From Spirochaetales bacterium (GTDB taxonomy: Bacteria > Spirochaetota > Spirochaetia > Treponematales > UBA12059), in contig JAFGJV010000059.1 of the NCBI GenBank assembly GCA_016928955.1, positions 1 through 56,366 of the forward strand: 56,366 bases of DNA, given 5' to 3'. The position numbers and the translations under genes were made by a program. This document shows, in pieces, positions 384 to 11,191 of this stretch (position 1 is its first letter; every line of letters starts with the position of its first letter). A model generated the notes under the pieces. That model worked only from the letters and a program-made list of their open reading frames with translations, was not told the DNA's origin and ran no database searches.

Positions 384-2864
384 ATGAAGAAAGCGCTTAT
401 CGCGCTGGCCCTGATCCTGGTCGTAGCGGGTTCCGCGTTCGCCCAGGTCAAGAACGGGCCGATCGTGGACAAGGTGATCTACGAAGTCCGCATGGACCAG
501 ACCCTCGCCACCAAGGACATCATCGAAGGCAAGGCCGATGTATTCTTCCAGGCAGTGCCGGCTGGCGTGCTCCGCGGTTTGTCCGAGGCCGAGAAGGCCA
601 AATTGGACTTCTACGCGGTTCCGTCGGGATCGTGGTCCCTTATGGTCAACCCCATCCCCAACAAGGCCCCGTACACCTGGACCAAGAAGGATGGAACGAC
701 CGAGTTCAATCCCTTCGCCATCAAGGAAGTCCGCTATGCCATGAACTGGCTCATCGATCGCAAGAAGCTGATCGACGAAATCCTGTTCGGCCAGGGCGAC
801 CCGATGTTCGTCCCCATGACCCCCGGTCAGCCCGGTACCTACAAGTACAACCTGATCGCCGCCAAGCTTGGCATGTCAGACCGCGGTAACGAGAAGAAGG
901 CCCTCGCCGACATCGAAGCCGCCATGCAGGCCGCCGCCAACCTGCCCGAGAACAAGGGCAAGCTGGTCAAGTCCGGCAAGTTCTGGCAGTTCAACGGCAA
1001 GGACGTCGCGATCAAATTCCTGATCCGCGTTGACGATCCCCAGCGCCTGACCGCCGGCCGCTACATATCCGACCAGATCGAAAAGGCCGGCATCAAGGTC
1101 GAGCGCCTCGAGCGCGACCGCGCCGCCATCTCCATCGCCTACTACTCCAACCCCGCCGACATAGAGTTCCACCTCTACACCGAGGGCTGGGGCGCCGGCG
1201 CCACACGCGCCTGGTGGGACATCACCATCAGCCAGATGTACAGCCCGTACTACGGCTACATGGCCGGCGGCGCTGACCCCGCCAACTGGAACTATGAGAA
1301 CGCCGAGCTGGACCGCCTTGGCATGAAGGGCCTCAACGGCCAGTTCATGACCGAAGCCGAGTACTGGGCCGACAACCTCAAAGCCACCGAGCTTGGCGTC
1401 AGGGAAGCTGCCCGTATCTACGTGGCCAGCCAGCTTGACAGCTTTGTGGCCAACAAGGCCCGCTTCAACAGCCGCATGGCTTACGGCCTTGGCGACGGCC
1501 TCAACGGCTGGTCCGTCCGCACCGCGGACGTCAAGCCCGTCAACGGCGTCAAGACCCTGCGCATCCTCCAGTTCTCCGCTCGCGGCACCCTGTTCATGAG
1601 CGCCTGGGACCCCATCGGCGTGGACGGCTTCTCTGACGTCTACTCCAGGGCCATGCTCGAGCCCATCATGGACTTTGCCACGTTCGAAGCGCCCAACAGC
1701 GCCCAGGACACCCCGCTCCGCGCCGTCTACGACCCCAAGAAGATCGTCAACAAGACGGTCCTCCAGGGCGACGAGATTAAGGGCCAGATCGCCGTTCCGG
1801 CCACCGCCGTCAGGTATGACAGCGCCACCAAGACCTGGAAGCCCGTGGGCTCCGGCGTCATGGCCTGGACCTCCGGCGTGTACGGCTACAAGTACGGCAA
1901 GTGGCACCATGGCGTCATGCAGGACATGACCGACATCATCCACGGCATCGCCTTTGGCACCGAGTGGGTGACTGAGGACGGAGCCGGCGACAAGTACTAC
2001 GACGCCAGCTACTCCTCCCAGATCAAGCCCGGCCTGGACCTGATCAAGGGCACCATCATCAACAAGAACGGCACCTTTGGCCGCTACTTCGACTACCAGT
2101 GGCCCATGGACGTTAACCGCACCGCCGCCAACGGCGCCGTCAGCGCGACCATGCCGTGGGAAATCACCGAAGCCCTGGCCCTCCTTGTGGCCGAAGGCTC
2201 CAAGAGCAGCACCGTCTACAGCTTCACCAACACCGAGGGCATCACCGAGGTCGACGTGATCGCTGAGAAGTGCGTAGCCGACATCAAGGCCAAGCTGCAG
2301 GACATGGTCGCCAAAAAGCACGTGCCCGTGGCCCTCAAGGCCTACACCACCGCCGACAAGGCAGTGGCCCGCTACAACGCGGCCATCAAGTTCATCGACA
2401 CCTATGGCCACGCCATGATCTCCCAGGGTCCCTTCTACATCAGCAAGATCAGCACCCAGACCAACTCCGTCGAGCTGACCGCTTTCCGCGACTACGTGTA
2501 CAAGAGTGACTACTGGCCCAAGGCGTTCCGCACCACGATCACCAAGATCGAGAACGTGAACATCCCGGCCACCGCCACCCGCAAGGCCGACCTCAAGGTA
2601 GACGTCACCGCGTCCACCTACGTGTACCCGGACGTGGCCACCACGCCGGTTACCAACAAGGCCAAGGTTACCGTAGCCATCCAGATGCCCGACGGCACCG
2701 AGAAGGTCTACAACGCCAAGTACAGCAAGGCTGGTCTCTTTACCGCGACCATCCCCGCCAAGGACCTTGGCGCCATGAAGCCCGGTTCCTACACCGTGGT
2801 CATCATGTCGTCCCTGGCCGGCGAGGCTCCGTCGGTAGTACCGAAGACCCTCGTCCTGTTCTAA
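384..2864 (+). CDS. Peptide-family ABC transporter substrate-binding protein (SBP family 5)
   Basis: Periplasmic binding component of an oligopeptide/dipeptide-type ABC importer. The start has a textbook AAGGAGG seven bases upstream and opens a signal peptide: KK, a hydrophobic core, then AFAQ with cleavage near residue 20. At 826 aa it is much longer than the roughly 540 aa usual for DppA/OppA. The last 100 residues look like a beta-sandwich (Ig-like) extension. It is first of five co-directional genes, followed by two permeases and two ATPases, so it supplies the ligand. A GC-rich hairpin before the next gene would let it be made in excess. The early isoleucine codons are all ATC, unlike many genes in the window, consistent with high expression. 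Substrate unknown. Confidence 0.85.
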   Translation: MKKALIALALILVVAGSAFAQVKNGPIVDKVIYEVRMDQTLATKDIIEGKADVFFQAVPAGVLRGLSEAEKAKLDFYAVPSGSWSLMVNPIPNKAPYTWTKKDGTTEFNPFAIKEVRYAMNWLIDRKKLIDEILFGQGDPMFVPMTPGQPGTYKYNLIAAKLGMSDRGNEKKALADIEAAMQAAANLPENKGKLVKSGKFWQFNGKDVAIKFLIRVDDPQRLTAGRYISDQIEKAGIKVERLERDRAAISIAYYSNPADIEFHLYTEGWGAGATRAWWDITISQMYSPYYGYMAGGADPANWNYENAELDRLGMKGLNGQFMTEAEYWADNLKATELGVREAARIYVASQLDSFVANKARFNSRMAYGLGDGLNGWSVRTADVKPVNGVKTLRILQFSARGTLFMSAWDPIGVDGFSDVYSRAMLEPIMDFATFEAPNSAQDTPLRAVYDPKKIVNKTVLQGDEIKGQIAVPATAVRYDSATKTWKPVGSGVMAWTSGVYGYKYGKWHHGVMQDMTDIIHGIAFGTEWVTEDGAGDKYYDASYSSQIKPGLDLIKGTIINKNGTFGRYFDYQWPMDVNRTAANGAVSATMPWEITEALALLVAEGSKSSTVYSFTNTEGITEVDVIAEKCVADIKAKLQDMVAKKHVPVALKAYTTADKAVARYNAAIKFIDTYGHAMISQGPFYISKISTQTNSVELTAFRDYVYKSDYWPKAFRTTITKIENVNIPATATRKADLKVDVTASTYVYPDVATTPVTNKAKVTVAIQMPDGTEKVYNAKYSKAGLFTATIPAKDLGAMKPGSYTVVIMSSLAGEAPSVVPKTLVLF

Positions 2865-2883
2865 GCCTACAAGTAGGTTTTCA

Positions 2884-2909
2884 GGCGGCGTCCCGCAAGG
2901 GGCGCCGCC
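2884..2909 (+). terminator. Partial terminator-like hairpin between binding protein and permease genes
   Basis: GGCGGCG (2884-2890) pairs with CGCCGCC (2903-2909), and inner CCC/GGG pairs close a GCAA loop. There is no proper T-run after it, so it is more likely a processing or attenuation hairpin that lowers expression of the downstream permease genes than a full stop. Confidence 0.5.
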
Positions 2910-3002
2910 CTTGTTCAAGGCAGCGCTTCCGAACGCCCGTCCGACAGACATCCCTTGACAATCGGAAAGCTCACGCCTATCCAACGTTTTTTAGGTGGCA
3001 GT

Positions 3003-4043
3003 ATGTACAAGTGGTTTGCGCTGAAGCGCATTCTCCGCGGCCTGTTCATGTTCGTCCTGCTGATGTTCATTTTCTCCTGGCTGTTCAACCAGGTTACGGA
3101 GAAGACCCAGCGGGACCAGATAGATGAACGGATCAAGCAAGAGTCCATGCGACTCAAAAACGTCAGACCCGAGCAAATGCTGGAATGGCGCCTCAACCGG
3201 GAGGACCAGCTCATAAAGCTGTACCGCCTGGACCGGCCCATGATGGAACGGGTCCTGTACCGCGCCCTCAGGGGCGTTACCTTTGACTTTGGCGACTCGA
3301 CCGTGATCAAATCAGGCAAGGGCGAGCGCGAGGTCAGGGCCATCATCTTCGAGGCTTTGCCGCGGACCATGGTCCTCTTTACCACCGCGGCGGTCATCCA
3401 GATGCTCATAGGCATCAGCCTGGGCCTCAAGAAGGCGCAAAAACCGGGCGGAAAGCTGGACAAAGCAACCAGCTTTACCACCATGCTCGTGTTCGGCATG
3501 CCATCCTGGTGGCTTGCCATGATGCTCATCCTGTTATTCGTCTACGTTCTCAAGCTGTTCCCATCCGGGGGACTCAACTCTGTGCCCACGCCTGAAGGCT
3601 TCATGTTCTTCCTTGACCGCCTCAAGCACATGGCACTACCGCTTTTGACCCTGGTCCTCCTCGGGTTCTGGGGCATGTCCTTCACGATCCGCAACATCGT
3701 GCTGACCATACTCCAGGAAGACTACATCATGAGCGCCCGCGCCCGCGGCATCCCCGAGCGCAAGGTCCTGTTCGGACACACCCTCCGGACCGCGGCCCCG
3801 CCCCTGGTGACCATGGTGCTCCTCGGGCTCCTCGGTTCCATAGGCGGCGCGATTATCTTCGAAGGTATTTTCTCCTGGCCTGGACTCGGCAACCTGTATT
3901 GGATAGCCGTCCAGCAAAACGATATACCGGTGCTCATGGGAGACCTGGCCATCACCACGGCCCTCTGGCAGGGAGGACTCATCGTGCTAGACCTCACCTA
4001 CGGCTTCCTCGATCCGCGTATTAAGGTAGGAGGCAAGGCATGA
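3003..4043 (+). CDS. ABC transporter permease, OppB/DppB family
   Basis: First membrane subunit of the peptide-type importer. The ATG at 3003 is chosen because AGGTGG lies just upstream and the protein then begins MYKWFALKRILRG, typical of the family. A TTG at 2955 would add 16 residues with no ribosome site. An N-terminal membrane helix is followed by a short periplasmic part and a cluster of helices. A family-typical EAA-loop region (ARARGIPERKVLFGHTLR, about residues 242-260) contacts the ATPases. Length 346 aa is normal. The stop overlaps the next start (ATGA), implying coupled translation. Confidence 0.88.
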   Translation: MYKWFALKRILRGLFMFVLLMFIFSWLFNQVTEKTQRDQIDERIKQESMRLKNVRPEQMLEWRLNREDQLIKLYRLDRPMMERVLYRALRGVTFDFGDSTVIKSGKGEREVRAIIFEALPRTMVLFTTAAVIQMLIGISLGLKKAQKPGGKLDKATSFTTMLVFGMPSWWLAMMLILLFVYVLKLFPSGGLNSVPTPEGFMFFLDRLKHMALPLLTLVLLGFWGMSFTIRNIVLTILQEDYIMSARARGIPERKVLFGHTLRTAAPPLVTMVLLGLLGSIGGAIIFEGIFSWPGLGNLYWIAVQQNDIPVLMGDLAITTALWQGGLIVLDLTYGFLDPRIKVGGKA

Positions 4044-5458
4044 GCGCCAAAAAAAGCAACTCGCGCTTCCAGGAATTCTGGGACGACTTCAGGCGGGAAA
4101 AGTCCGGCCTCATAGGCTTGGGCATCCTGGCCGTCGCCATCCTGGTGGTCATCTTCGAGCCGTTGTTCCTGCCCTACAAGGACGTGAACGAAGGCAACTG
4201 GCGCAACATTTCATACTGGGAAGACAACTCGTCGGCCGCGCCTCCGGCGTGGACCAACATCTTCACCTCCAAAAAGTCCGCCGTGTCCACCACGTTCAAC
4301 TCTCCCGAGGTAAGCACCGAGGAAGACCCGAACTACGGGCTGGTGACCACCTACTCGTTCAAGTACAACTACAAGTACGACCTTCCGCCCCTGGACCTGA
4401 TCATAAGGGCCAAGGCGTCGGGCATGTCACTCTTCCTCATGGAGCTCGAGCGCCCGGACGGCAACATAGTGCCGGTCGGCGAGCAGTTCTTCGAGGGCCT
4501 GAACGAGGACCAGATACGCTTCTCCATGGACACGGACGCGGCGAGCAACGCGTACGAGTTCGCGCGCCAGTTCGCCAGCGAGGAAGCCCTGGCCAACAGC
4601 GACTCAACCACCATCCGGCCGACCTTTGTGGCCTTCTCGGAAACAGGGTCGGACATGCTGAGCGCGCGCGTCCCGCTCAAGGGCACCTACACCCTGCGCA
4701 TCAGGGTGCCGTCGTTCATCACCGACGACAGCAACAACGTCCTTGAGGACCTGCGCCTGATCGTGACCGGCCGCGTATCCGGCATTCTGGGCACGGACAC
4801 CTACAAGCGCGACATCTTCACGGGCATCGTGGCCGGTCTCAAATGGGCCCTGTTCATAGGCCTGGCCACCTCCGTGGTGTCGGTCCTGTTCGGCGTCATG
4901 TACGGCATCATAAGCGCGTATTTCGGGGGCTTTGTGGACACGAGCATGCAGTTCGTGTACCAGATATTCGCCGGCATACCGGTCATGCCCCTGCTCATCG
5001 TGCTCGCGGCCATCTTCAAGCCAAGCATATGGATCATCATGGGCGTGATGATCGTGTTCAGCTGGACCGGCTCGGTCATGACGGTTCGCTCCATGGCCTT
5101 CCAGATCAAGGAAGAGACCTTCGTGGAGGCGGCCAAGGCCCTGGGCTCCGGCAAGTGGCGCATCATCTTCAAGCACATAGCGCCCATCCTCCTGCCCTAC
5201 TCCTTCGCGAGCATGGCCCTGGCCGTGCCCGGCACCATCGTGTACGAGGCGTCCCTGTCCCTCCTGGGCCTGGGCGACCCCACCATCATCACCTGGGGGC
5301 AGATACTCCACGACGCGCAGAATTCTGGCGCCACGCTGAACGGCCTGTGGTGGTGGATCGTGCCGCCCGGCTTGTTCATCGCCCTCATGGGAGCCACCTT
5401 TGCCTTCCTGGGTTTTGCCATGGACAAGATCCTGAATCCCAAGCTGAGGACGAGGTAA
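4040..5458 (+). CDS. ABC transporter permease, OppC/DppC family, with large extracytoplasmic insert
   Basis: Second membrane subunit of the importer. GGAGG sits seven bases before the ATG, which overlaps the preceding stop. The protein is 472 aa against about 300 for standard DppC. The extra roughly 170-200 residues (about 50-250) lie after the first membrane helix. They are rich in beta-strand-like and acidic segments and would face the periplasm. The C-terminal half carries the permease helices and the EAA loop (about residues 355-375, EAAKALGSGKWRIIFKHI). The insert may dock the equally oversized binding protein; that link is inference. Confidence 0.87.
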   Translation: MSAKKSNSRFQEFWDDFRREKSGLIGLGILAVAILVVIFEPLFLPYKDVNEGNWRNISYWEDNSSAAPPAWTNIFTSKKSAVSTTFNSPEVSTEEDPNYGLVTTYSFKYNYKYDLPPLDLIIRAKASGMSLFLMELERPDGNIVPVGEQFFEGLNEDQIRFSMDTDAASNAYEFARQFASEEALANSDSTTIRPTFVAFSETGSDMLSARVPLKGTYTLRIRVPSFITDDSNNVLEDLRLIVTGRVSGILGTDTYKRDIFTGIVAGLKWALFIGLATSVVSVLFGVMYGIISAYFGGFVDTSMQFVYQIFAGIPVMPLLIVLAAIFKPSIWIIMGVMIVFSWTGSVMTVRSMAFQIKEETFVEAAKALGSGKWRIIFKHIAPILLPYSFASMALAVPGTIVYEASLSLLGLGDPTIITWGQILHDAQNSGATLNGLWWWIVPPGLFIALMGATFAFLGFAMDKILNPKLRTR

Positions 5459-5461
5459 ACC

Positions 5462-6429
5462 ATGGATAAGATCCTCGAAGTCAAGAACCTGAAACTGTAC
5501 TACCACACCAACAAGGGCGCGGTGAAAGCGCTGGACGACGTCACCTTTGACCTGTACAAGGGCGAGACGCTCGGCCTTGTGGGAGAGTCCGGCTGCGGCA
5601 AGACAACCACGGGCGTGGCCCTGTTGCGCATGCCCAGCCCCCCCGGCCGCATAGAGGAAGGGTCCCAGATCATCCTTGACGGCCGCGACATCATGCCCCT
5701 GACCGAGCGCCAGATCCGCAAGGACGTCCGCTGGGAAGAGGTGGCCATGGTGTTCCAGGGAGCCATGAACTGCCTAACGCCGGTGTACACCATCGGCAAG
5801 CAGATGATGGAAACCCTGCAGGAACACCGGGAGATGGAGAAGAAGCAGGCCGAGGAACTCATCAAGGAGTACCTGAGCCTGGTCGGCCTTCCGCCCGAAG
5901 TGATGGGCCGCTACCCGCACGAGCTGTCGGGCGGCATGAAGCAGCGCATCGTCATAGCCACCGCCCTGTTCCTCAAGCCCAAGGTGGTCATCCTGGACGA
6001 GCCCACCACGGCCCTTGACGTGATCGTGCAGGCCCAGATCATCAACCTGCTCAAGAAGCTGAAGAAGACCTTTGACCTGTCCTTCATCTTCATCACCCAC
6101 GACCTGTCGCTCGAGGCCGAGGTTTCCGACCGCATATGCGTCATGTACGCCGGCAAGATAGCCGAGCTGGGCACCAACCAGCAGATATACGGCAAACAGG
6201 GGCCCATGCATCCGTACACGGAGAAGCTCCTGCAGGCGACGCCCCTCCTCAGGAAAAAGGTCGAATCGCTTTCCTTCATACCGGGCGCCCCGCCGGATCT
6301 CATCGATCCCCCAACGGGCTGCCGCTTCCATCCCCGCTGCCACAAGGTCATGGACCGCTGCAAGGTGGAAGAGCCGCCGCTCATAGAGGTTGAACCCGGT
6401 CACATGGTGGCCTGCTGGAGGTGCGTAAA

Positions 6430-6433
<4 letters not shown>
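5462..6433 (+). CDS. Peptide ABC transporter ATP-binding protein, OppD/DppD family
   Basis: Cytoplasmic ATPase that powers the importer. Walker A is GESGCGKTT (residues 41-49), the signature is LSGGMKQR (155-162) and Walker B is VVILDEP (175-181). The C-terminus has the oligopeptide-ATPase extension with a cysteine-bearing GCRFHPRC segment and further Cys residues. The gene starts three bases after the permease stop, with GAGGT upstream. Its end overlaps the start of the partner ATPase gene. Length 323 aa is typical. Confidence 0.92.
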
Positions 6434-7449
<1,016 letters not shown>

Positions 7450-9057: not shown

Positions 9058-10791
9058 TCAGATATCCAAGGCCTTCTGGTCGACCTTGTCCTTGAGATAG
9101 GCCACAAAGGCCTCGGGCTTCATGGGCTCCATCTGGCGCCCGTCGCGCATGCGCACCGACGCTGTGCCCTCGTCGCGCTCCTTGGCGCCCACCACCAGCA
9201 TGTAGGGAACCTTCTGGCCCTGCGCCAGGCGGATCTTGGCGTTCATGCGCTCGTCGGACAGCATGGCATCCACGCGGACGCCTTCCCGCCTCAGGATGTC
9301 TGCCACCGATTTGGCGTAGTCGGCAAAGTCCGGACCCACAGGTATGACGGCTGCCTGCACGGGAGCCAGCCACACCGGGAAGGCGCCGGCGGTGTGCTCA
9401 AGGTACACGCCGAAGAAACGCTCGATCGAACCCAGGAGGGCGCGGTGCACCATGTACGGCCGCTTTTTCTGCCCGTCCGAGTCCACGTAGGTCATGTCAA
9501 AGCGCTCGGGCTCGTTGAAGTCGAACTGTATAGTGGTCAGCTGCCATTCGCGGCCTATGGCGTCCTTTACCTTGAGGTCTATCTTGGGCCCGTAGAAAGC
9601 GCCGCCGCCCTCGTCCAGCTCGTAGGCAAGGCCTTCCTTGTCTATGGCCTTCTTAAGCGACGCCATGGCCTCGGCCCACTTGGCAGGCTCGCCCACGGCT
9701 CCGTCGCCCGCCGGCCTGGTTGCCAGGTACGCCTTGATGTCCTTGAAGCCCAGGGTCTTGTGCATGTGCAGGCTGAAGCGCAGGACCTCCAGGATCTCGT
9801 CTTCGATCTGCTCGGGGGTGCATATGATATGTGCGTCGTCCTGGGTAAAGCCGCGCACGCGCATCAGGCCGTGCAGGGACCCGGCCCGTTCGTAGCGGTA
9901 CACGGTACCGAGCTCGGCCCAGCGCAGGGGCAGGTCGCGGTACGAGTGCACGCCGCTGTTGTATATCATGATGTGGAACGGGCAGTTCATGGGCTTAACG
10001 TAGTAGTCGTCCTCGTCCACCTTCATGGGCGAGTACATGCCTTCCTTGTAGAAGCCCAGGTGCCCGGAGGTTTCCCACAGCCAGCTTTTCCCGATGTGCG
10101 GGGTGAAGAGTATCTCGTAGCCGTTCTTGTAGTGCTCGTCGCGCCACCAGTTCTCAAGCGACACCCGGAAACGGCCGCCCTTGGGGTGCCAGTAGATCAG
10201 GCCCGGGCCTGCTTCCTCGTGGGTGCTGAAGAGGTCCAGCTCCTTGCCCAGCCGACGGTTGTCGCGCTTTTCCGCCTCCTCAAGCATTTTGAGGTGGGCT
10301 TCCAGCTCGGCCTTGGTGGCAAAGGCGTACGCGTATATGCGGGTCAGCATGGGGCGCTTCTCGTCGCCGCGCCAATAGGCGCCGGCCACCGCGCGCAGCT
10401 TGAAGGAGTCCGGCCTGAGCTCTCGGGTAGACGCCACGTGGGGACCGCGACAGAGGTCGCGGAATTCGCCCTGCTCGTACACGCTGATGGTGCCGTCTTC
10501 AAGGCCGTCGATCAGCTCCAGCTTGAAGGGTTCGGCCGCGAACATGGCCTTGGCCTCTGACTTGCCCACTTCCAGGCGCTTGAACTCTGCCCCGGACGCT
10601 ATGATCCTGAGCATCTCTTTCTCGATGGCGGGGAAATCATCTTCCCGTATGGGAGAGGGCAGCTGGAAGTCGTAGTAGAAGCCGTCGTCTATGGCGGGCC
10701 CAATGGCTACCTTGGTGCCCGGATAGAGTTTGACCACGGCTTCGGCCATGACATGGGACAGTGAGTGACGGATGGTCTCGATGGGTTGCAT
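9058..10791 (-). CDS. thrS: Threonyl-tRNA synthetase lacking the TGS domain
   Basis: Charges tRNA-Thr with threonine in the cytoplasm. At 577 aa it is shorter than the roughly 640 aa standard form, because the protein starts directly at the editing domain (MQPIETIRHSLSHVMAE, zinc/editing motif HxxxH at residues 9-13, later CRGPH). The N-terminal TGS domain is absent. The class II catalytic core is complete: motif 2 (RYERAGSLHGLMRVRGF), the TQDDAHIIC segment and motif 3 near GSIERFFGVYLEH, followed by an anticodon-binding domain. It is preceded by a T-box leader, so expression should rise when uncharged tRNA-Thr builds up. Confidence 0.95.
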   Translation of the reverse strand: MQPIETIRHSLSHVMAEAVVKLYPGTKVAIGPAIDDGFYYDFQLPSPIREDDFPAIEKEMLRIIASGAEFKRLEVGKSEAKAMFAAEPFKLELIDGLEDGTISVYEQGEFRDLCRGPHVASTRELRPDSFKLRAVAGAYWRGDEKRPMLTRIYAYAFATKAELEAHLKMLEEAEKRDNRRLGKELDLFSTHEEAGPGLIYWHPKGGRFRVSLENWWRDEHYKNGYEILFTPHIGKSWLWETSGHLGFYKEGMYSPMKVDEDDYYVKPMNCPFHIMIYNSGVHSYRDLPLRWAELGTVYRYERAGSLHGLMRVRGFTQDDAHIICTPEQIEDEILEVLRFSLHMHKTLGFKDIKAYLATRPAGDGAVGEPAKWAEAMASLKKAIDKEGLAYELDEGGGAFYGPKIDLKVKDAIGREWQLTTIQFDFNEPERFDMTYVDSDGQKKRPYMVHRALLGSIERFFGVYLEHTAGAFPVWLAPVQAAVIPVGPDFADYAKSVADILRREGVRVDAMLSDERMNAKIRLAQGQKVPYMLVVGAKERDEGTASVRMRDGRQMEPMKPEAFVAYLKDKVDQKALDI

Positions 10792-10799
10792 AGGTACGC

Positions 10800-11150
10800 T
10801 CCCGACACGGAAAAGGCCCCCGCGGGGCGCGTCCTTCCGCCCCGCCGGACCGTTCCCGGCGTTTTAGCGTAAGGACGAACTCCGTAGGGGCCTGTCATGG
10901 GCCTACCGCCGCCGGACAACGTCCGGTAGCGGTGCGGAATCCGCGGTACCACCTTACTTCGGGCCGGTGCCTTGGCCGCCGGTCCGCGCTCTCGTTCCCT
11001 GTAACGGGAGAACCCGGCATCCATTAATCGCGCGGGGCGCTTTCACGGGTGCGGCTCCGGAGTGGTTTTCCGTGGGTCCCGACGGCGCCCTTCCAGCCTG
11101 GGGGCGTCCTCTCTCTGGACGGGATGATCCTTGTACTCGTCTCCATCAAA
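10800..11150 (-). promoter_or_regulatory. T-box riboswitch (threonine specifier ACC) upstream of thrS
   Basis: Reading the minus strand, Stem I begins with GATGGAGACGAGTAC (11147-11133). It continues with the AGAGAG element (about 11116-11111) and a GGCTGGAAGG apical segment (about 11098-11089). The specifier region AAAACCACTCCGGAGC places ACC (Thr) at 11066-11064. The conserved T-box AAGGTGGTACCGCGG lies at 10955-10941. A terminator hairpin then sits just ahead of the gene. All the classical elements appear in the right order, and the specifier matches the enzyme. Uncharged tRNA-Thr should pair with ACC and with UGGU and favour read-through. Confidence 0.92.
10811..10851 (-). terminator. Intrinsic terminator of the thrS T-box leader
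   Basis: On the minus strand GGTCC (10851-10847) and GCGGGGCG (10845-10838) pair with CGCCCCGC (10829-10822) and GGGCC (10819-10815, one G-U pair). TTTT follows at 10814-10811. A competing helix can form between CGTCCTT (10877-10871) and AAGGACG (10836-10830). This fits a switchable leader terminator. Confidence 0.7.
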
Positions 11151-11162
11151 GCCTGTGGGAAG

Positions 11163-11191
11163 AATATGCCGCAGCTTTTGTCCCGCGTCAA
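11163..11191 (-). promoter_or_regulatory. Sigma-70-type promoter of the thrS leader
   Basis: On the minus strand, TTGACG (11191-11186), a 17-base spacer and CATATT (11168-11163). The predicted transcript start falls about 10 bases before the first T-box Stem I sequence. Confidence 0.7.

What the first reader, a model, noticed from the sequence alone, without database searches (positions are those of the whole stretch)
10800..11191. Threonine T-box riboswitch in a probable spirochaete
Seen: promoter, Stem I start, AGAGAG element, ACC specifier (11064-11066), T-box AAGGTGGTACCGCGG (10941-10955) and an intrinsic terminator, all in the right order before thrS. Known: T-box leaders are described mainly in Firmicutes and Actinobacteria and a few other phyla; I am not aware of their being described in Spirochaetota. 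If the host is a spirochaete this is a wider taxonomic range, either ancestral or acquired with thrS.
Basis: partly seen in the sequence, partly recalled or inferred. Interest (0 to 1): 0.75.

Follow-up and report, generated by a model that had tools for sequence, protein, structure and literature searches.

The report
Threonine T-box riboswitch in a spirochaete
Upstream of the threonyl-tRNA synthetase gene of an uncultured spirochaete lies a T-box RNA switch that most likely senses uncharged threonine tRNA; such switches turn out to be common in spirochaetes, and in this one and many of its relatives one base of the usual contact with the tRNA end cannot pair normally.

Summary
On the minus strand, 11154-10811 is a full-length T-box leader of thrS: conserved promoter, Stem I, ACC specifier, Stems II, IIA/B and III, T-box bulge, antiterminator and intrinsic terminator. 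RF00230 scores 64.1 bits (E 1.4e-13 for the genome), below Rfam's gathering score of 93, probably in part because the antiterminator carries a 52-nt two-hairpin insert. The host is Spirochaetota. It is no isolated case: 72 of 393 genomes of the phylum carry T-boxes, and 62 of 77 hits precede thrS, across 13 families. Spirochaetal ThrS forms one main clade next to T-box-bearing Chloroflexota ThrS, so the leader was probably present early in this ThrS lineage and was later lost in termite-gut treponemes. Papers I could search report none; a 2008 survey counted 0 T-boxes in 6 spirochaete genomes. Unexpected: the bulge reads UGGU although tRNA-Thr has U73, a U-U mismatch. The tRNA is U73 in all 52 spirochaete genomes checked, but the T-box base is U in 36 of 68 spirochaetal thrS leaders; in Firmicutes and Chloroflexota it is A (one G). 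It is a known kind of RNA in a poorly documented phylum, with variant features. All evidence is computational.

The parts
11186..11191 (-). -35 hexamer TTGACG
   Evidence: TTGAC conserved in 16 of 16 relatives in which Stem I start was found
11163..11168 (-). -10 hexamer CATATT, 17-nt spacer
11052..11154 (-). T-box Stem I, 103 nt, with GA motif (GATGGAGACGAGTA) and AGAGAG bulge
   Evidence: alignment; 248 of 269 cells paired and 11 of 27 pairs with compensatory changes among 10 relatives
11064..11066 (-). specifier codon ACC (Thr; pairs with anticodon GGU)
   Evidence: ACC at this place in nearly all spirochaetal thrS leaders
11018..11051 (-). Stem II region
   Evidence: alignment (approximate limits)
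11001..11017 (-). Stem IIA/B element CCGGGTTCTCCCGTTAC
   Evidence: alignment
10961..10990 (-). Stem III with flanking purines
   Evidence: alignment (approximate limits)
10952..10957 (-). antiterminator helix A1, 5' strand GTAAGG
10945..10951 (-). T-box bulge TGGTACC; 10948 (T) is the base that faces tRNA position 73
10936..10944 (-). antiterminator helix A2, 5' strand GCGGATTCC
10884..10935 (-). 52-nt insert in the A2 apical loop: hairpins 10933-10906 and 10903-10889
   Evidence: similar long inserts in the host's family, short loops elsewhere
10875..10883 (-). antiterminator helix A2, 3' strand GGAGTTCGT
10869..10874 (-). antiterminator helix A1, 3' strand CCTTAC
10811..10892 (-). intrinsic terminator: GGCCCC..CGTCCTT / AAGGACG..GGGGGCC then TTTT (10814-10811); shares 10883-10869 with the antiterminator
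   Evidence: -51.4 kcal/mol, z -3.1
9058..10791 (-). thrS, 577 aa, class II ThrRS without an N-terminal TGS domain match
   Evidence: TIGR00418 691 bits; Pfam tRNA_SAD, tRNA-synt_2b, HGTP_anticodon

Best explanation
A transcriptional T-box riboswitch that controls thrS in a spirochaete. Shown by sequence: the promoter, an ACC specifier in Stem I, an antiterminator and a terminator that share the strand 10883-10869, and thrS directly downstream. Inferred from established T-box knowledge: uncharged tRNA-Thr(GGU) pairs by its anticodon with ACC and by its 3' CCA with the UGG of the bulge, holds the antiterminator together, and lets RNA polymerase run into thrS; charged tRNA cannot, the terminator forms and transcription stops. 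Two points depart from the textbook: the fourth bulge base (U10948) faces U73 of tRNA-Thr and cannot form a Watson-Crick or G-U pair with it, and the antiterminator has a 6-bp A1, a 9-bp A2 and a 52-nt two-hairpin insert on top of A2, part of which (GGCCCC) also serves as the base of the terminator. I suggest, without proof, that the stronger antiterminator makes the lost pair tolerable.
For: RF00230 64.1 bits, E 1.4e-13 per genome. ACC specifier in nearly all of 68 spirochaetal thrS leaders. Stem I compensatory changes in 11 of 27 pairs. Antiterminator score 13.2 against 8.0 in shuffles (0.5% of shuffles reach 13, 71% of the real ones do), with covarying positions A1_2, A1_4, A2_3, A2_5. Terminator -51.4 kcal/mol, z -3.1, then TTTT. 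Promoter conserved in relatives. Host has a single tRNA-Thr(GGU) species found here, U73; all three Thr isoacceptors are U73. Same RNA before thrS in 62 of 77 phylum hits.
Against: Score is below Rfam's gathering cut-off. Position 73 mismatch: in the literature UGGN is complementary to NCCA in a majority of T-boxes (PMC7778990, PMC2916919). Several close relatives (L002, L007, L144, L123, L154, L156) have no run of four or more T after the competing hairpin, so termination may not be the mode in all of them, and the run here is only four T. No expression or binding data exist.
Confidence: 0.87

Rival explanations
1. The specifier is read one base later, as CCA, and the switch senses tRNA-Pro(UGG), whose A73 would pair properly with UGGU.
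For: Host tRNA-Pro(UGG) and tRNA-Pro(CGG) have A73, and the triplet one base on is always CCN, a Pro codon.
Against: The A of ACC is constant across leaders while the base after ACC is A, C or G, which is what a Thr specifier predicts and the reverse of what a Pro specifier predicts. ACC stays the same whether the bulge base is U, A, G or C. The gene is thrS. ACC lies at the canonical place in the Rfam alignment.
Confidence: 0.04
2. The leader works at the level of translation, or by both modes, rather than by transcription termination.
For: Close relatives without a T run after the hairpin. Inserts on helix A2 are described as frequent in translational T-boxes (PMC7583486).
Against: Window terminator followed by TTTT; long T runs at the same place in most other spirochaetal families. 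The Shine-Dalgarno sequence is outside the terminator hairpin. Stem I is of the long kind typical of transcriptional T-boxes.
Confidence: 0.15
3. A degenerate T-box that no longer responds to tRNA; the mismatch with U73 reflects decay.
For: U-U mismatch at position 73; loss of the T-box before thrS in termite-gut treponemes.
Against: Compensatory changes in Stem I and the antiterminator, constant ACC and constant TGGNACC, conserved promoter and terminator over 9 families with the mismatch.
Confidence: 0.04

Closest known systems
Transcriptional (class I) T-box leaders of thrS in Firmicutes (Rfam RF00230)
   Same: Long Stem I, ACC specifier, T-box bulge TGGNACC, A1/A2 antiterminator competing with a terminator, placed before thrS.
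   Different: Firmicutes: bulge base A in 25 of 26 and G in 1, pairing with U73; distance between antiterminator strands mostly 13-21 nt against 70 here; 13-16 T-boxes per genome against one here. Firmicute ThrS hits lie in longer open frames (about 640 codons).
thrS T-boxes of Chloroflexota (Anaerolineae and others)
   Same: Thr T-box before a thrS whose protein is the sister group of the spirochaetal one.
   Different: Bulge base A in all of those found, strands 16-22 nt apart with one outlier that is probably mis-scored; 2-7 T-boxes per genome.
Translational (class II) T-boxes of Actinobacteria
   Same: Inserts on helix A2 are described there (PMC7583486).
   Different: The window's leader has a long Stem I and a terminator followed by TTTT.

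Membership tests
T-box riboswitch (RF00230) | covariance-model match over the whole model | tested here: met
   positions 1-219, 64.1 bits, E 1.4e-13 per genome; below the curated gathering score of 93
T-box riboswitch (RF00230) | Stem I with a specifier codon that matches the downstream gene | tested here: met
   ACC (Thr) before thrS; Stem I covariation
T-box riboswitch (RF00230) | 7-nt bulge beginning UGG, between helices A1 and A2 | tested here: met
   TGGTACC 10951-10945; A1 6 bp, A2 9 bp
T-box riboswitch (RF00230) | fourth bulge base complementary to tRNA base 73 (usual, with known G-U exceptions for Trp; not treated here as defining) | tested here: not met
   bulge U against U73 in the host
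T-box riboswitch (RF00230) | terminator (or sequestrator) that excludes the antiterminator | tested here: met
   both use 10883-10869
T-box riboswitch (RF00230) | binding of uncharged tRNA and response to charging | not testable with these tools
   needs experiment

The most novel reading that the evidence does not exclude
Spirochaetota hold a lineage of threonine T-boxes that has given up the base pair with the tRNA discriminator base (position 73), several times independently, and still senses charging by CCA alone, helped by an enlarged antiterminator.
Probability: 0.45. Interest if true: 0.6.

Novelty: new variant of a known kind. Interest (0 to 1): 0.47.

Why it matters
It adds a Gram-negative phylum in which a T-box is common (mostly one copy per genome, for thrS) to a regulatory family that is described mainly from Gram-positive bacteria, and gives a dated-by-phylogeny example of its spread or early presence. 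The repeated U-U mismatch makes a textbook rule, that UGGN matches NCCA, directly testable in a natural setting.

Tried and rejected
Rfam at the gathering threshold gives nothing; the permissive search was needed. The short hairpin GCGGA/TCCGC that Rfam aligned as the antiterminator was rejected, because it is not kept in L007, L123, L142, L154 or L156, whereas the long pairing is kept in every relative. A base-pairing between the bulge GGTAC and the GTACC after the Shine-Dalgarno sequence was considered as a translational switch and dropped: only 5 bp here, and not general. Discriminator bases were first read one base off in four genomes by my acceptor-stem search (G000, G130, G370, G376); the sequence shows T73 in each. 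The firmicute gaps of 38 and 66 (L289, L297) and the Chloroflexota gap of 71 (L048) are probably mis-scored partners. Literature searches for T-box with Spirochaetes, Spirochetes, Sphaerochaeta and Treponema gave no description of a spirochaetal T-box; many subscription papers are not in that library, and TBDB or Rfam may list such sequences.

Full report
What is there. The minus strand from 11191 to 10791 holds, in order, a sigma-70-like promoter (TTGACG, 17 nt, CATATT), a T-box leader and thrS. The covariance model RF00230 matches over its full length with 64.1 bits, E 9.6e-14 for the stretch and E 1.4e-13 for the genome, in which it is the only match. It stays under the curated gathering score of 93. 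The same holds for most spirochaetal hits (25 of 393 genomes have one above the cut-off, 72 at E up to 0.001). The control genomes that ring at that threshold are Bacillus, Lactococcus, Corynebacterium, Thermus and Deinobacterium, as expected, and not E. coli, Caulobacter, Synechococcus, Bacteroides, Thermotoga or the archaea.

Anatomy. Stem I spans 11154-11052. In ten relatives its structure is kept in 248 of 269 cells, with compensatory changes in 11 of 27 pairs. The alignment was folded by RNAalifold on the same sequences, so the percentage paired leans towards the structure; the compensatory changes are the stronger evidence. The specifier is ACC at 11066-11064. The antiterminator is A1 GTAAGG/CCTTAC and A2 GCGGATTCC/GGAGTTCGT around the bulge TGGTACC. 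Over 68 dereplicated spirochaetal thrS leaders the best such pairing scores 13.2 on average against 8.0 in shuffled downstream sequence, and several positions covary. The partner strand was chosen to maximise pairing, which is why the shuffles were given the same freedom. In the window the two A2 strands are separated by a 52-nt insert that folds into two hairpins. The strand distance is 70 in the window and 45-105 in the host's family, mostly 21-39 in other spirochaetal families, and mostly 13-22 in Firmicutes and Chloroflexota. The terminator (10892-10811, -51.4 kcal/mol, z -3.1, followed by TTTT) uses the 3' strands of A1 and A2, so the two states exclude each other. Several close relatives keep the hairpin but lack the T run.

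Host. By remembered genome length only, some complete genomes in the survey may be Spirochaeta africana, Sediminispirochaeta smaragdinae, Treponema azotonutricium and T. primitia; this was not checked.

Distribution. 72 of 393 genomes of the phylum, 41 of 168 genera, have a T-box at E up to 0.001; stricter filters were used, so this is a lower bound. 62 of the 77 hits lie before thrS, in 13 families. T-boxes also precede thrS in named Spirochaetota MAGs and in Chloroflexota, but not in 14 of the 15 termite-type treponeme or related loci listed as L010-L023 and L025 with enough upstream sequence to judge by a motif search (L021 has one). Genomes sampled from Elusimicrobiota, Kiritimatiellota, Riflebacteria, Nitrospirota, Lentisphaerota and others had none.

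Origin. In a ThrS tree of 165 rows (quick search, SH-aLRT only) the main spirochaetal ThrS forms one clade (99) that stands with T-box-bearing Chloroflexota ThrS (96), and T-box-bearing leaders occur on most of its branches. A second, distant ThrS lineage in four spirochaetal families also carries the leader. The simplest reading is a T-box present early in the main spirochaetal thrS lineage and lost in some treponemes; whether spirochaetes and Chloroflexota share it by transfer or descent is open, since the tree is unrooted.

The odd base. By the usual rule the fourth base of UGGN pairs with tRNA base 73. tRNA-Thr(GGU) has U73 in all 52 spirochaete genomes with a T-box in which it was found, including the host, whose three Thr isoacceptors are all U73. 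Firmicutes and Chloroflexota controls also have U73, and their thrS bulges read UGGA, with one UGGG that can wobble. In Spirochaetota the base is U in 36, A in 24, G in 7 and C in 1 of 68 leaders. U with U73 was seen in 27 genomes of 9 families. On the tree at least six changes between pairing and non-pairing are needed. The TBDB paper reports Watson-Crick pairing for the majority and names the Trp family (G-U) as exception. So the mismatch is real in sequence, recurrent, and unexplained. Reading the specifier one base later as a Pro codon would restore the pair but is contradicted by the constant A of ACC.

Known or new. Wels et al. 2008 (PMC2494555) counted 0 T-boxes in 6 spirochaete genomes. 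No paper in the library searched describes one. Automated annotation or TBDB may well contain some. I therefore file it as a T-box, with all defining sequence features met and the discriminator match not met, and call it a variant.

Noticed in passing
L082, L084, L085 (1501-1755 and downstream gene): Tyr-type T-boxes (specifier UAC by eye) in a spirochaetal family (f9) precede a sodium/solute symporter gene (Pfam SSF), suggesting a tyrosine transporter.
   Followed up: partly
L086 1501-3281: A T-box with a UAC specifier precedes a beta-eliminating lyase of the tryptophanase / tyrosine phenol-lyase group; odd, since a switch that turns on in starvation would then control a normally catabolic enzyme.
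   Followed up: partly
L083, L112, L113, L114: T-boxes (specifier probably UAC) before an AMP-binding ligase gene followed by a folP-like gene.
   Followed up: partly
L090, L133, L148, L152: T-boxes with Ile- or Val-like specifiers (AUC, GUC by eye) before genes for a fusion of HTH, cupin and AMP-binding domains.
   Followed up: partly
L118 and L129: Trp-type T-boxes in spirochaetes: before a TrpX-like ABC substrate-binding protein (bulge UGGC) and before trpBA.
   Followed up: partly
L106, L124, L132, L137, L147, L149: A second, distant ThrS lineage (46-51% identity to the window's) in four spirochaetal families, also with a Thr T-box.
   Followed up: partly
L123 around the end of Stem II: Several tandem copies of CAGCTCTGGCTGTT inside the T-box leader.
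   Followed up: no
window 384-7449: An oligopeptide-type ABC transporter operon (solute-binding protein, permease, two ATPases).
   Followed up: no
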